Shown one piece after another: positions 55,776 through 64,000 of a DNA stretch of 64,000 nucleotides; within the stretch, counting starts at the first letter, position 1, and every line of letters begins with the position of its first letter. The translations under genes were made by a program, and so were the position numbers. This stretch comes from Herbiconiux sp. L3-i23 (lineage in GTDB: Bacteria; Actinomycetota; Actinomycetes; Actinomycetales; Microbacteriaceae). The stretch is from NCBI RefSeq assembly GCF_023734115.1, contig NZ_AP025737.1, positions 2,976,001 through 3,040,000 on the forward strand, read 5' to 3'. The notes under the pieces were generated by a model. It searched no databases and had not been told where the DNA came from. It worked only from the letters and a program-made list of their open reading frames with translations.

Positions 55776-58928
<3,153 letters not shown>

Positions 58929-58932
<4 letters not shown>

Positions 58933-59318
58933 AGGGTCTCCATTCCTTCCCTGACGACGCGCACGTCGTCGGGGGTTCCGAAAAGTTCGAAGCGGTAGAG
59001 GTGGGGCACCGCGCACTTCGCGGCGATGATGTCGCCCGCGAGTCCGTATGTCTCACCGAAGTTGGTGTTGCCGGCGCCGATGACGCCGCGGATGAGAGCG
59101 CGATTGCTCTCGTTGTTGAGGAAGCGGATGACCTGCTTGGGCACCGCCCCGTTGCCGTTGCCGCCTCCGTAGGTCGGCACGATCAGCACGTAGGGCCGAT
59201 CGACCAGCAACGGCTCATCCCGCGCGTAGAGCGGGATGCGCCGTGCCGGCAGGTCGAGCTTCTCGGCGAATCGGTGCGTGTTGCCCGATGCGCTCGAGAA
59301 ATACACGACCTCGTTCAT
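58929..59318 (-). CDS. nrdI: Flavodoxin-like NrdI
   Basis: A 129-residue FMN protein that activates the manganese cofactor of Nrd[17 protein letters not shown] is the phosphate loop, [21 protein letters not shown] and [18 protein letters not shown] hold the FMN loops. ATG 59318 gives full length. It is separated from nrdH by 44 bases. Confidence 0.96.
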
Positions 59319-59362
59319 GACTGTGGCCTCGTGATGGACGCTCGCGACGCGGGACCCGAGGG

Positions 59363-59596
59363 TCACGCGATCTTCGCGGCGAGCTCCTCGATGCGGTCGG
59401 GGCGGAAGCCGGACCAGTGGTCGTCGTCGGTCACGACGACGGGAGCCTGCATGTAGCCGAGCTCCTTGACTGCCTGAAGCGCCTTCTCGTCGATCGACAC
59501 ATCGAAGATCTCGTACTCGAGACCCTTCTTGTCGAGCGCGCGGTAGGTCGCGGTGCACTGAACGCAAGACGGCTTGCTGTAGACGGTGATGGCCAC
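59363..59596 (-). CDS. nrdH: Glutaredoxin-like NrdH
   Basis: A 77-residue thioredoxin-fold reductant for NrdE. The redox motif CVQC follows the start ([20 protein letters not shown]), and [22 protein letters not shown] is the usual later part. GTG at 59596 gives family length. It is the first gene of nrdHIEF; upstream lies a 338-base gene-free region with NrdR-like boxes. Confidence 0.96.
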
Positions 59597-59727
59597 TCTG
59601 GGCGCCTCTCTCCCCTTTGGTGTCCGAGCTGCCGAACCTTCGACAGGTGTCTTCAGGTACAACATCTCGGACTCCACCCGTATGCCCGATCAGCCGACCG
59701 GACAGCGGCTCCCCAGCCGCAGATCGA

Positions 59728-59913: not shown

Positions 59914-59929
59914 ACACAATGTCTTGTGG
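59914..59929. promoter_or_regulatory. Third NrdR-like box, near the PPTase start
   Basis: ACACAATGTCTTGTGG, the best NrdR-like match of the three by sequence, but with no partner 31 bases away. It ends 5 bases before the PPTase ATG at 59935, so it could act on that gene. Confidence 0.4.
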
Positions 59930-59934
59930 TCGGG

Positions 59935-60618
59935 ATGAGTCGTGTCGTCGGAACGAGCGGAAGACGCGAGGACCTGGGCGGCGACGCCGGGGCCGACGGC
60001 CTCGTCACGTGGCGACTGGCCGGGGTGGCGGTCTGCGTCGCGCCCGACGCCGATCTCGCGGGTGGCTCTGTCGATCGGCTCGGCCTCGAAGAACGCATCC
60101 GCGACGAGTCGACCCCGTCCGACCGCAGGCCCGCTTACCGCGCCGGTCGGCTGCTGCTCCGCCACGCCGTCGCGCAGCTCGGCGAGGACCCGGGGGAACT
60201 CGCTCTCTCGGCGCGGTGCGAGACCTGCGGCGGACTGCACGGCCGTCCGCGGGTGACGCATCCCGTCGCGCTCCGCCACCTGTCCCTGTCGGTGAGCCAT
60301 TCCCAGGGGGTCACGGCGGTCGCCGCCGCGACCGGCCGCGCGATCGGCATCGACCTCGAGGCCCGAAGCGATGCCGGCGTCCCGGCGATGCCCGACGGGT
60401 TCTCGACACTCGCCGAGTGGACCCGCGCGGAAGCGGTGCTGAAGGCCGACGGCCGCGGGCTGCGGGTCGACCCGCTCGCGGTGGCCGTGATCGAGGACGC
60501 CGAGGGGGTCCACGCCACCATCGGAAGCGATCGGCGACGCTACCGGCTCGTCGAGCCCGCACTCCTCGCGACTCACCACCTCGCCGTGGCGCTCGCGATC
60601 GACCCGCCGTCGGGCTAG
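59935..60618 (+). CDS. 4'-phosphopantetheinyl transferase
   Basis: A 227-residue Sfp-like PPTase that loads phosphopantetheine onto carrier proteins. AYRAGRLLLRHAVAQL, LSVSHSQGVTAVAAATGRAIGIDLEARSD (the Mg site GIDLE) and EWTRAEAVLKADGRGL (a variant of WxxKEA) are present. ATG 59935 is used; GTG 59926 is an alternative. It lies next to an NRPS-type gene whose carrier domain it probably activates. Its stop shares a CTAG with the convergent aminopeptidase. Confidence 0.88.
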   Translation: MSRVVGTSGRREDLGGDAGADGLVTWRLAGVAVCVAPDADLAGGSVDRLGLEERIRDESTPSDRRPAYRAGRLLLRHAVAQLGEDPGELALSARCETCGGLHGRPRVTHPVALRHLSLSVSHSQGVTAVAAATGRAIGIDLEARSDAGVPAMPDGFSTLAEWTRAEAVLKADGRGLRVDPLAVAVIEDAEGVHATIGSDRRRYRLVEPALLATHHLAVALAIDPPSG

Positions 60619-61943
60619 CGCGGCAACCGGGGCAGAGCCGTGCGGAACAGCCAGAGGTCGAAGAACGCCGCGGCGCCCGACCCGTGCCCGTCGAGGCCGT
60701 GCCGCCCGGCGAGCTCGACGAAGTCGGCGGTGGAGGCGACGCCGTGCCGGTGCGACCGCGTCCACTCCTGCACCAGCGCCCAGAAGGCGTCGTCGCCGAT
60801 CGTCAGGCGGAGAGCGTGCAGCGTGAGCGCGCCTCGCTTGTAGACGCGGTCGTCGAACATGTCTGCGCTGCCGGGGTCGCCGATCAGGATGTCGGCCGGC
60901 AGTGAGCGCAGCGCCACCGCGAAGCGGCGCGCCAGCGCGTCGGCGGTCGGTCCGCCGGCGTGCTCCGACCAGACCCACTCCGCGTAGCAGGCGAAGCCCT
61001 CGTTCAGCCAGATGTCCCGCCATTGCGCGACGCCCACACTGTTGCCGAACCACTGGTGGGCGAGCTCGTGCGCGATGAGGCGCTCGGAACCGGACCGTCC
61101 GTCGACGTGGTTCGCCCCGAAGATGGCCATCGACTGCGCCTCAAGGGGGATCTCGAGCGGATCGGCGGTGACGACAGCGGTGAACTGCTCGAACGGGTAG
61201 GGCCCGAAGCGCGAGGAGAAGTGGCGGATCATCTCGGGCAGGGGGGCGAAATCGTGCTCGACGCGGCGCAGCAGAGCCGTCGGATGCACGATGCGCACCC
61301 CCACTCCGTCGACGTCGTCGCGTCGAGACACGTAGCGTCCGATCTGCACGGTCGCGAGATAGGCGCTGGTCGGCTCGGGCTGCTCGTAGAGCCGCGAGAT
61401 CCGGCCGCCCCGGTCGGAGGATTCGCGGAGGTAGCCGTTCGCGACCGCGTCGTATCCGGCGTCGGTGCGGATGCGGATCCGATATGCGGACTTCTCGGCC
61501 GGATGGTCGTTGCAGGGGAACCAGGTCGACGCGCCCGAGGGCTGGGCGGCCACGAGCACCCCGTCCTCGAGCTCCTCCCAGCCGAGCGGGCCCCACGGGG
61601 ACCGGCGCGGAGCGGGAGAACCCCAGTACTCGACGACGACGACGACCTTCTCGCCGTCGGGCAACGGGGTCGCCGGGCGCAGGACGAGCTTGTGACCGGT
61701 GTGCCTCACACCGGCCGGGCGCTCGCCGTCGATGGTGACCTTCGCGACCCGAAGTCCGGAGAAGTCGAGCGAGAGCTCGTCGACCGTCCGCCGAGGGAGG
61801 ATCGTCAGTCGCGCGACGGCCTGCAACCGGTTGCCGCGGACCCGGTAGTCGAGATCGAGGTCGTAGCCGACCACGTGGTAGCCGTCGTCGCCCATGCCGG
61901 GCAGATAGCCGTCCACCGGCGACGAGGCGGACGCGCCGGTCAC
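60615..61943 (-). CDS. Compact M1 family zinc aminopeptidase
   Basis: A 442-residue metallopeptidase with His292-Glu293 and His296 in HELAHQWFG and the third zinc ligand Glu315 in WLNEGFACYAEW, the exact HExxH-x18-E spacing. It lacks the large C-terminal domain of typical M1 enzymes. No signal peptide, so cytosolic. GTG 61943 overlaps the stop of the NRPS-type gene by 4 bases (GTGA), so it is translated with it. It may trim or degrade that enzyme's product. Confidence 0.9.
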   Translation of the reverse strand: MTGASASSPVDGYLPGMGDDGYHVVGYDLDLDYRVRGNRLQAVARLTILPRRTVDELSLDFSGLRVAKVTIDGERPAGVRHTGHKLVLRPATPLPDGEKVVVVVEYWGSPAPRRSPWGPLGWEELEDGVLVAAQPSGASTWFPCNDHPAEKSAYRIRIRTDAGYDAVANGYLRESSDRGGRISRLYEQPEPTSAYLATVQIGRYVSRRDDVDGVGVRIVHPTALLRRVEHDFAPLPEMIRHFSSRFGPYPFEQFTAVVTADPLEIPLEAQSMAIFGANHVDGRSGSERLIAHELAHQWFGNSVGVAQWRDIWLNEGFACYAEWVWSEHAGGPTADALARRFAVALRSLPADILIGDPGSADMFDDRVYKRGALTLHALRLTIGDDAFWALVQEWTRSHRHGVASTADFVELAGRHGLDGHGSGAAAFFDLWLFRTALPRLPR

Positions 61944-64000
61944 GCCGTCCGAGCCGACCGGGCCGATGCATCGCGGTACTCGCGCACCCGCACCTCCCGC
62001 CACGGACCGATCGGATTGCCGCTCCACCTGGTGCCCTGCGGCACGAGTTCGCCGCGCATGACGAGGGACGCGGGACCGACCACCGCCGAGCGTCCCACCG
62101 TCGCGGCGGGCAGCACGACGCTGTGCGGACCGAGCGTGGCGCCGGGCTCGAGTACTGCTTCGTCGATCGTCATGATCCGATCATGGAACAGATGCGTCTG
62201 AACGACGCATCCGCGCCCCACACTGGAGCCGGCTCCCAGCGTCACGAGGTCCGCCTCGGGCAGCCAGTAGGTCTCGCACCAGACCCCCGCCCCGATGCGC
62301 GCACCGAGGCTCCGCAGCCACCAGACGAGCGCCGGCGTGCCGCCCGCACTGTTCGCGAACCACGGGGCGGCGACCGTCTCGACGAAGGTGTCGGCGAGTT
62401 CGCTGCGCCAGATGAACGACGACCACAGCGGGTGCTCGCCCGCGCGGATGCGACCGACGAGCAGCCACTTCGCCGCGGTCGTCACGGCCGCGGCAGCGGC
62501 CCCGGCGCCGATCAGGACGAGGCCCGAGAGCAGCGCGGCGAGCCAGGGCGACACGGTGGCGAGCCCGACCAGGGCGGCGACCGCGAGCACGCCGATGGCC
62601 CACGACGCGAACACGGGGACGATGCGCAGCGCTTCCCATCCGCCCCGGGCCAGACGCAGCGACGGGGTCGGCCGGTAGGTGCGCGACGCCTCCCCCTCGG
62701 TGGGCGTGCGGCGCAGCCGCACCGGCGGGGACCCCATCCACGACGACCCCGGCTTGCTCTTCACCGGCGCCGACGACAGCACCGCGACCAGGCCGTCCTT
62801 CGGCACGATGTGGCCGGCGCCCGCCATGCCGGAGTTGCCGACGAAGGCCCGCTTGCCGACTTCGGCGCGAGCGACGCGCACGTAGCCGCCGCCCAGGTCG
62901 TAGCCCGCGACCATGGTGTCGTCGGCGAGGAAGGCGCCGTCCTTCACCGTGGTCATCGCGGGGATGAGCAGCACGGTCGACGCTTCGACGTCGCGGCCGA
63001 CCTGCGCGCCGAGCAGACGCAACCACGTCGGGGTGAACCACCCCGAATAGAGCGGGAAGAGCAGAGTGCGCGAGAGGTCGAGCAGCCGCTCGGTCGCCCA
63101 CACCTGCCACCCGACGCGGCCGCGGACGGGGAACACGCCCTCCGACAGACCGATGCCGAGCAGGCGGACCAGTCCGACGACGAGAGCGGCGAGCACGGCG
63201 CCGGCGACCAGTACCGCGGGTGCCACGGCGAGCAGCGCAGGGCCTAACGCAGCGGCGGCGTCGGGTGCCGGGCGCACCGCGGCGAGGATCACGGCGGCTC
63301 CCGCGATCAGCGCGAGCACCGGCACCAGCGAGATACCGACCGAAGCGCCCGCGTAGGCGGCGATCCACCGCCGGCGGCGCGCGGGACGCTCGGCGGGCCA
63401 CCACGGCTCCGCCGACCCGATGCGCGCCGCCGGCGACCCCGCCCACCGCTGTCCCGCCCGCACCCGGCCGAAGACCGCGGATCCGGGATCGATCTCCGCC
63501 CGCTTGCCGATGCGCGTGCCGGGGAGGAGGGTCGATCGGGCGCCGACCCGGGCATCGGCACCGATGCGGATCGCTCCGAGTCGGAGGGTGTCGCCGTCGA
63601 TCCACCACCCCGACAGGTCGACCTCGGGCTCGATCGAAGCGTGTGCGCCGACGCTCAGCATGCCGGTGATGGGCGGCAGCGAGTGGAGGTCGGCGTCGTC
63701 GCCGATCTTCGCCCCCAACGCCCGCGCGTAGTAGACGATCCATGGCGCTCCGGCGAGGGAGGCGGCGCCGACCGCCGCCGCGATCGATTCGGCGGCCCAG
63801 AGGCGCAGATGCACCGATCCGCCGCGCGGATGGTCGCCCGCACGCACGCCGAGAAGCAGCAGCCGGGCGGCGACGACCGCGATCGCCATCCGCCCGAACG
63901 GCGTGCCGAGCAGGACGAAGGCGGGCGCGAGCAGCCACCAGGAGGCCTGCGGCAGGAAGTCGAAGCCGAGTGGCGCGAGCAGCGTGCCCGCCGCCAGGAG
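61940..64000 (-). CDS. Pls/PosA-type non-ribosomal peptide synthetase, C-terminal part (runs off the window)
   Basis: The visible 686 residues of an open frame that continues past 64000. Membrane helices alternate with left-handed beta-helix (hexapeptide) blocks: IGADARVGARSTLLPGTRIG, then VGRDVEASTVLLIPAMTTVKDG and AVLEPGATLGPHSVVLPAATVGRS. This is the pattern of the NRPS terminal domain TIGR02353 found after the adenylation and carrier domains of epsilon-poly-lysine synthetase (Pls) and its relatives. The adenylation domain, which would tell the amino acid, lies outside. The product is unknown. Confidence 0.82.
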   Translation of the reverse strand, partial: LLAAGTLLAPLGFDFLPQASWWLLAPAFVLLGTPFGRMAIAVVAARLLLLGVRAGDHPRGGSVHLRLWAAESIAAAVGAASLAGAPWIVYYARALGAKIGDDADLHSLPPITGMLSVGAHASIEPEVDLSGWWIDGDTLRLGAIRIGADARVGARSTLLPGTRIGKRAEIDPGSAVFGRVRAGQRWAGSPAARIGSAEPWWPAERPARRRRWIAAYAGASVGISLVPVLALIAGAAVILAAVRPAPDAAAALGPALLAVAPAVLVAGAVLAALVVGLVRLLGIGLSEGVFPVRGRVGWQVWATERLLDLSRTLLFPLYSGWFTPTWLRLLGAQVGRDVEASTVLLIPAMTTVKDGAFLADDTMVAGYDLGGGYVRVARAEVGKRAFVGNSGMAGAGHIVPKDGLVAVLSSAPVKSKPGSSWMGSPPVRLRRTPTEGEASRTYRPTPSLRLARGGWEALRIVPVFASWAIGVLAVAALVGLATVSPWLAALLSGLVLIGAGAAAAAVTTAAKWLLVGRIRAGEHPLWSSFIWRSELADTFVETVAAPWFANSAGGTPALVWWLRSLGARIGAGVWCETYWLPEADLVTLGAGSSVGRGCVVQTHLFHDRIMTIDEAVLEPGATLGPHSVVLPAATVGRSAVVGPASLVMRGELVPQGTRWSGNPIGPWREVRVREYRDASARSARTA

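What the first reader, a model, noticed from the sequence alone, without database searches (positions are those of the whole stretch)
59935..64000. Pls/PosA-type peptide synthetase coupled to an M1 aminopeptidase beside a PPTase
The 64-kb end holds the membrane and hexapeptide terminal part of a Pls-like NRPS, its stop overlapping a compact M1 peptidase start, with a phosphopantetheinyl transferase convergent to both. Pls of Streptomyces makes epsilon-poly-lysine, and epsilon-poly-lysine-degrading aminopeptidases have been described in its producer. A synthetase plus trimming/self-protection peptidase plus activator would be a self-contained homopolymer or capped-peptide system not yet assigned a product in this group.
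Basis: partly seen in the sequence, partly recalled or inferred. Interest (0 to 1): 0.75.

Follow-up and report, generated by a model that had tools for sequence, protein, structure and literature searches.

The report
Poly-lysine synthetase with its degrading peptidase
The window ends inside a gene pair already known from poly-lysine-making actinobacteria: an enzyme that strings lysine into a cationic polymer and the peptidase thought to break it down; here the peptidase probably works inside the cell, and many relatives carry a likely phosphate-starvation switch in front of the pair.

Summary
Beyond base 64000 the synthetase has adenylation and carrier domains. Its ten-residue pocket code, DAESIGTVVK, equals that of the solved epsilon-poly-L-lysine synthase 7wew. 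The M1 gene starts in a GTGA overlap with the pls stop and is, by position and sequence, the counterpart of Streptomyces PldII. Among 120 Microbacteriaceae genomes this M1 occurs in 47 of 47 with pls and 0 of 73 without, so a housekeeping role is unlikely. A pls-peptidase operon, with lysine argued as substrate, is in print for coryneforms (PMC8117764), so 'product unassigned' is overstated. Not found in the papers searched: (1) PldII of the S. albulus type carries a twin-arginine leader (20 of 20), the wider class including this locus none (0 of 152), so extracellular trimming is unlikely here; (2) an Sfp-type PPTase is linked to pls in Micrococcales; (3) PHO-box-like repeats precede many wider-class pls genes (24 of 145), a candidate for the 'unknown trigger' of this silent pathway. 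The window's own copy keeps only a half-site. Known kind; moderate interest.

The parts
61940..64000 (-). 3' part of pls (residues about 625-1310 counted from the in-frame ATC: membrane helices and C1-C3 acyltransferase-like domains); the gene continues to about G000:C1:3041872 with A and T domains
   Evidence: TIGR02353 700.5 bits, AA-adenyl-dom 330.8 bits; AMP-binding and PP-binding; 7wew E 7.1e-193; code DAESIGTVVK; hydrophobic blocks at residues 646-676, 836-916, 1079-1139, plus a marginal one at 108-128 inside the A domain
60615..61943 (-). M1 metallopeptidase, counterpart of PldII, 442 aa from the GTG at 61943 (longest ORF starts at 62027)
   Evidence: PF01433 87.4 bits; HEXXH-18-E in 141 of 141 M1 copies; no leader; co-occurrence with pls
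61940..61943 (-). GTGA overlap of pls stop and M1 start (translational coupling inferred)
   Evidence: ATGA, GTGA or TTGA overlap in 72 of 141 loci; 15 more by my count of the listing start at an ATG in TGATG or TAATG; in some loci the script mis-set the junction, so both are lower bounds
59926..60618 (+). Sfp-type 4'-phosphopantetheinyl transferase, convergent; start codon uncertain
   Evidence: invariant GxDxE and WxxxExxxK residues in 24 rows; profile hits Sfp 1qr0 E 1.2e-10; of two PF01648 matches in the genome at E up to 1, the other is AcpS-like

Best explanation
This is a pls-pldII type operon of a Naasia species (Microbacteriaceae), of the wide class that is not the S. albulus type. 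Pls activates L-lysine (A domain), loads it on its carrier domain (T), and its membrane-bound tandem C domains polymerise it through the epsilon-amino group to epsilon-poly-L-lysine. The coupled M1 peptidase is made in step with Pls, stays in the cytoplasm, and most likely hydrolyses polymer or oligomers that remain or return inside. The convergent PPTase primes the Pls carrier domain. Shown by sequence: domains, lysine pocket, gene order, co-occurrence, missing leader. Inferred: polymer made, peptidase activity on it, cytoplasmic site, PPTase partner.
For: Pocket code identical to 7wew; 139 of 142 loci identical, 2 differ by I to V, 1 is a divergent paralogue. A domain 66-68% identical to 7wew. 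Carrier serine in 142 of 142. M1 with E<1e-100 in 47 of 47 pls genomes, 0 of 73 others (the two listings compared by eye). M1 found on the same strand as pls in 172 of 176 stretches, near-duplicate genomes included; within about 0.2 kb of the pls match end in 87 of the 92 loci measured. The gene after S. albulus-type pls is the same M1 family, 40-45% identical. C. variabile pls gave epsilon-poly-lysine in S. coelicolor. Repression of pldII in S. albulus lengthened the polymer (PMC9223678, passages). The own genome has one profile match to this PPTase type and three carrier domains, of which the two others lie in frames of 111 and 84 residues.
Against: I know of no product shown for any Microbacteriaceae, and C. 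variabile itself made none in culture. Absence of a leader does not prove a cytoplasmic enzyme, and M1 starts were chosen by rule. A 2010 study is cited as saying that chain length is not set by degrading enzymes (passage). The Naasia pls lacks a standard start codon at the expected place. Three S. albulus-type loci (L268, L269, L273, beside 20 with it) have no M1 in the stretch fetched, so a peptidase is not indispensable. PPTase linkage could reflect history, not partnership.
Confidence: 0.75

Rival explanations
1. The peptidase is an unrelated housekeeping aminopeptidase that happens to lie next to pls.
For: It belongs to the broad M1 family; weaker paralogues exist in some genomes, with pls (for example G053, G100) and without (G055, G070).
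Against: Co-occurrence 47 of 47 vs 0 of 73 at E<1e-100, same strand in 172 of 176 stretches, poor match to aminopeptidase N (88.7 bits vs cut-off 591.2).
Confidence: 0.03
2. Pls here polymerises another cationic amino acid (diaminobutyrate, diaminopropionate, ornithine).
For: Sister enzymes of the same architecture make such polymers; a divergent Pls-like paralogue with code DFECLSVVTK and no M1 beside it exists in G078.
Against: Code identical to the lysine enzyme 7wew; the paper reports that pockets of the other three synthetases differ substantially and that their gene context differs.
Confidence: 0.1
3. The M1 works outside, trimming or detoxifying secreted polymer as proposed for S. albulus PldII.
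For: PldII is reported at the outer face of the membrane in S. albulus.
Against: Twin-arginine leader in 20 of 20 S. albulus-type M1 copies, 0 of 152 in the class of this locus; no N-terminal hydrophobic stretch in the own protein (19-residue Kyte-Doolittle maximum 0.04 in the first 50 residues).
Confidence: 0.12
4. Remnant: the Naasia pls is decaying (no canonical start codon, degenerate upstream element).
For: No ATG, GTG or TTG in frame near the homologous N-terminus, alone among the 107 of 142 loci where the anchor motif was found; a split pls occurs in G083.
Against: The frame is open over 1,310 codons with the motifs tested intact; a Shine-Dalgarno-like GGAGGA sits 7 nt before an in-frame ATC.
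Confidence: 0.1

Closest known systems
pls-pldII operon of Streptomyces albulus (epsilon-poly-L-lysine)
   Same: Same synthetase architecture, identical lysine pocket code in the solved A domain 7wew (its source organism, S. albulus, is recalled), same M1 family gene directly downstream with overlapping stop and start; coupling reported for S. albulus.
   Different: Pls 52-55% identical to the seven S. albulus-type copies, which form a separate branch with 7wew; S. albulus-type M1 has a twin-arginine leader, this one none; no PPTase detected next to pls there.
pls plus peptidase operon of Corynebacterium variabile, and pls homologues in coryneforms including Microbacterium (PMC8117764)
   Same: Pls with a peptidase gene in an operon, lysine-type pocket; product shown for the C. 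variabile pls in S. coelicolor.
   Different: Export leader, PPTase neighbour and PHO boxes are not mentioned in the sections read (Results, Discussion, Bioinformatics); the C. variabile sequence was not in my set, so its class was not tested.
Sfp-type PPTases (Sfp, human AASDHPPT)
   Same: Near full-length profile match and invariant acidic and lysine residues.
   Different: The window protein alone is below the Pfam cut-off.
Zinc metalloprotease 6a8z (compact M1; from Deinococcus, recalled)
   Same: Similar length, near full-length match E 1.2e-48.
   Different: No link to pls was looked for; substrate not compared.

Membership tests
Pls epsilon-poly-L-lysine synthetase | A domain with lysine pocket | tested here: met
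   DAESIGTVVK equals 7wew; positions assigned from the recalled GrsA numbering
Pls epsilon-poly-L-lysine synthetase | T domain with serine | tested here: met
   PP-binding 46.2 bits, serine in 142 of 142
Pls epsilon-poly-L-lysine synthetase | Membrane and tandem C domains in place of condensation and thioesterase domains | tested here: met
   TIGR02353 over cut-off; five Pfam families at E up to 0.001, none of them condensation or thioesterase; three clear hydrophobic blocks
Pls epsilon-poly-L-lysine synthetase | Makes epsilon-poly-lysine | not testable with these tools
   needs expression and mass spectrometry
PldII | Same gene family as the gene following S. albulus-type pls, coupled to pls | tested here: met
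   40-45% identity, same position, GTGA overlap; that this gene is PldII rests on position, as no named PldII sequence was held
PldII | M1 zinc site HEXXH-18-E | tested here: met
   141 of 141
PldII | Exported to the cell exterior | tested here: not met
   no leader in the own copy nor in any of 152 wide-class copies; 20 of 20 S. albulus-type copies have one. Hence filed as a PldII counterpart, not as an exported PldII
PldII | Hydrolyses epsilon-poly-lysine | not testable with these tools
   needs enzyme assay
Sfp-type PPTase | Catalytic motif residues and near full-length homology | tested here: met
Sfp-type PPTase | Pfam PF01648 gathering score reached by the window protein alone | tested here: not met
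   17.9 vs 25 bits; of five relatives scanned, four pass (28.8 to 60.2 bits) and one, L102, does not (20.1)
Pho regulon member | PHO box (two GTTCACC units, 4-nt spacer) upstream of the own pls | tested here: not met
   5 of 14 mismatches, half-site only
Pho regulon member | PHO-box-like repeat enriched upstream of wide-class pls as a group | tested here: met
   24 of 145 upstream regions with at most 2 mismatches vs 2 of 2900 shuffles; specific to the 4-nt spacer
Pho regulon member | PhoP binding or induction by low phosphate | not testable with these tools
   needs experiment
Housekeeping aminopeptidase N | PepN equivalog score | tested here: not met
   TIGR02412 88.7 vs 591.2 bits

The most novel reading that the evidence does not exclude
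Actinobacterial pls operons fall into two physiological kinds. The S. albulus kind secretes an antimicrobial polymer and exports its peptidase. The widespread kind, to which this locus belongs, is in many lineages a phosphate-starvation (PhoP) operon whose polymer is made and taken apart by a membrane synthetase and a cytoplasmic peptidase: a closed synthesis-degradation cycle (reserve, counter-ion or stress polymer), like cyanophycin with its cyanophycinase (recalled analogy), and not mainly an antibiotic. Phosphate starvation would be the unknown trigger that keeps coryneform pls silent in culture.
Probability: 0.25. Interest if true: 0.7.

Novelty: new member of a known kind. Interest (0 to 1): 0.42.

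Why it matters
Pls-type genes are common in actinobacteria: 47 of 120 Microbacteriaceae genomes pass the TIGR02353 cut-off, and 166 of 392 genomes of a Streptomyces-type genus have a Pls-type A domain. Yet C. variabile made no polymer in culture, and the authors wrote that an unknown trigger signal is likely needed. The PHO-box enrichment names a simple trigger to test. The leader split predicts opposite cell compartments for the peptidase in the two classes, which bears on why a producer makes a degrading enzyme in step with its synthetase.

Tried and rejected
Housekeeping M1: disfavoured by co-occurrence. Other monomers: unlikely by code. PHO box in front of the own pls: looked for, only a half-site. 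PHO box in front of the PPTase: at most 3 mismatches in 2 of 75 upstream regions, so no general pattern. Gene start: no canonical start; ATC after GGAGGA or an upstream CTG are both possible. In the sister L102 an in-frame GTG 11 codons before its ATC is an alternative, so a conserved ATC start is not shown. My first upstream pattern was taken by eye from four loci and could be biased; there 35 of 142 loci were dropped for lack of the anchor motif. The heptamer count did not use the pattern (only heptamers seen in at least 12 regions were ranked), and GTTCACC came first.

Limits of the counts. The 145 'wide-class' upstream regions are all deduplicated regions without a twin-arginine M1, so up to four loci without M1 (L100, L268, L269, L273) are among them. 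Read on the other strand, the first 142 upstream regions gave 5 with at most 2 mismatches, 3 of them perfect, more than shuffles would give; divergent neighbours may own these. The wide class is defined by exclusion and not shown to be a clade: five Streptomyces-type rows and Solihabitans lie outside the 34-row group that holds Naasia. The PPTase profile was built from pls-adjacent copies, so 47/47 vs 5/73 leans towards linkage; the independent PF01648 count (two or more matches: 38 of 47 vs 8 of 73) agrees but misses divergent copies, the own one included. For the M1, only computed a Fisher value from numbers I entered; the match of the two genome lists was by eye. Fisher values ignore relatedness. 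M1 starts were taken as the first start codon at or after the pls stop, so a leader beginning further upstream would be missed.

Literature. Searches showed no paper in their listings that joins epsilon-poly-lysine synthetase with a Pho regulon, a linked PPTase or leader loss; only the open-licence library was searched, most hits were seen as listings only, and Yamanaka 2010 (on an epsilon-poly-lysine-degrading enzyme) was not held. PMC9223678 calls PldII an endo-type metallopeptidase with two zinc ions from a homology model (passages), which does not agree with the single M1 zinc site seen here.
Full report
What is there. The window is G000:C1:2976001-3040000 of a 3.18 Mb, two-contig genome. 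A genome of the same genus, G008, has its pls on a contig of the same length (199,040) as a record titled uncultured Naasia sp., so the genus is Naasia, Microbacteriaceae (inferred). No condensation or thioesterase family is among the five Pfam matches (made on the 1,238-residue form).

Substrate. The closest solved structure by sequence is 7wew, an epsilon-poly-L-lysine synthase A domain (E 7.1e-193). Aligned to it, the ten Stachelhaus positions (GrsA numbering recalled) read DAESIGTVVK in both. In 142 loci the code was identical in 139, DAESVGTVVK in 2 (L098, L246) and DFECLSVVTK in 1 (L100), an about 30% identical paralogue with no M1 match in its stretch. The carrier serine is present in 142 of 142.

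Peptidase. In the family sample of 120 genomes, 47 have a TIGR02353 match over its cut-off. The M1 protein finds a match with E<1e-100 in those 47 and in none of the other 73; two of the 73, G055 and G070, have weaker paralogues (lists compared by eye). On the same strand as pls it is found in 172 of 176 stretches; the exceptions are L100 and three S. albulus-type loci, L268, L269 and L273. Of the 92 loci, 87 have it within about 0.2 kb of the end of the pls match, and five Tsukamurella and Williamsia loci have 0.6-2.2 kb in between. All 141 M1 copies aligned have HEXXH-18-E and the tyrosine of the next motif. Stop and start overlap as ATGA, GTGA or TTGA in 72 of 141. A paper states that S. 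albulus pldII is translationally coupled to pls and lies outside the membrane, and that repressing it gave polymer of more than 40 residues (PMC9223678, passages); an older study is cited elsewhere as finding that degrading enzymes do not set chain length (PMC3937719, passage). Another paper reports a pls-peptidase operon in C. variabile and lysine-type pockets in homologues from Microbacterium and other genera (PMC8117764, Results, Discussion and Bioinformatics sections). So the pair itself is known.

Two classes. Of 172 loci with an M1, the 20 whose A domain is at least 73% identical to 7wew all have a twin-arginine leader on the M1. The other 152, own copy included, have none by the rule used: RR-x-[LIVFMA] in the first 30 residues followed by a hydrophobic 13-mer (near-duplicates included). 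A tree of 48 Pls proteins (of 142 then held) plus 7wew puts the S. albulus type on its own branch (SH-aLRT 100, length 0.74). The Naasia protein falls in a 34-row group with other Microbacteriaceae, Micrococcaceae, Nocardiaceae and further families; five Streptomyces-type rows without a leader and Solihabitans lie outside both, so the wide class is not shown to be a clade. At least one Streptomyces-type genome, G899, carries both kinds (L240 and L246). The exported peptidase therefore looks special to the S. albulus type, and the peptidase of this locus is most simply read as cytoplasmic.

PPTase. The convergent gene is a divergent Sfp-type enzyme. The genome has one other PF01648 match, AcpS-like, and one match to the PPTase profile. 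Pls carries the only carrier domain inside a long frame; the other two PP-binding matches lie in frames of 111 and 84 residues, the second next to a ketosynthase-like gene by my reading. In the 120 genomes the profile matches 47 of 47 with pls and 5 of 73 without; 43 of the 47 have it within 6 kb of pls, on either side. By tblastn with the own protein it was found in the fetched stretch in 24 of 26 named Microbacteriaceae, 7 of 13 Micrococcaceae, 1 of 1 Intrasporangiaceae, 0 of 38 Mycobacteriales, 0 of 2 others and 0 of 40 Streptomyces-type loci (genera grouped from my own knowledge; divergent copies can be missed). It is best read as the activator of Pls in Micrococcales.

Regulation. In 145 deduplicated upstream regions of wide-class pls, the most enriched heptamer against dinucleotide shuffles is GTTCACC (51 regions, 2.4 expected). 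As a direct repeat with a 4-nt spacer it is found with at most 2 mismatches in 24 of 145, against 2 of 2900 shuffles, and against 1, 5, 3, 1 and 0 of 145 for spacers 2, 3, 5, 6 and 7. Random windows of the first 142 loci gave 5 of 1420, and the same upstream regions read on the other strand 5 of 142. GTTCACC is the PHO-box motif named for S. coelicolor, and two 7-nt units with 4 nt between is the classical layout (PMC4415409, passages). In the own genome the only perfect copy of GTTMACC-N4-GTTMACC lies 118 nt before a pstS-like gene (PBP_like_2 155.9 bits; TIGR00975 198.4 bits, just under its cut-off of 205), which supports its being a PHO box in this organism. Of the four sites with one mismatch, two were looked at (a major-facilitator transporter gene and genes without a Pfam match) and neither is a known phosphate gene. 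The own pls has only GTTAACC with a displaced second unit (5 mismatches); its genus mates have 6 (L102) and 3 (L103). The S. albulus type shows no such element (0 of 19 with at most 3 mismatches). So the Pho reading applies to part of the class and is not established for this window.

Verdict. The locus is a member of a described kind, the pls-peptidase operon, with lysine as the very likely substrate. The new content is comparative: the missing export leader in the wide class, the Micrococcales PPTase partner, and PHO-box-like repeats that give a testable answer to why these genes look silent.

Noticed in passing
L005:7657-7873 (just beyond the window end; G000:C1 about 3041656-3041872): pls has no ATG, GTG or TTG in frame near its homologous N-terminus; GGAGGA lies 7 nt before an in-frame ATC, and an in-frame CTG lies further up. 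The ORF lister starts at an internal GTG, which loses 72 residues of the A domain.
   Followed up: partly
L100 (G078; contig length equal to that of the Planctomonas psychrotolerans record, L159): Second, about 30% identical Pls-like synthetase with pocket code DFECLSVVTK and no M1 match beside it: probably a different homopolymer.
   Followed up: partly
L101 (G083:C1:2188642-2190701): pls matched in two pieces in different frames in this genome; looks disrupted.
   Followed up: no
L268, L269, L273: S. albulus-type pls loci with no M1 match in the stretch and no HEXXH frame in the 1.8 kb after the pls match.
   Followed up: partly
L005:8463-9386 (beyond the window): Mem_trans (PF03547) permease two genes upstream of pls, also near pls in both genus mates L102 and L103 but not detected in the other 47 Microbacteriaceae stretches; a transport role for lysine or polymer is only a guess.
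   Followed up: no
L252 (G000:C1:438249-441434): Stand-alone carrier protein next to a ketosynthase III-like gene and a Wzc-like gene read from the DNA: a possible small acyl-modification locus (names are my reading).
   Followed up: no
window 55776-59677: Class Ib ribonucleotide reductase genes (NrdI by family match; the neighbours read by eye), ordinary.
   Followed up: no
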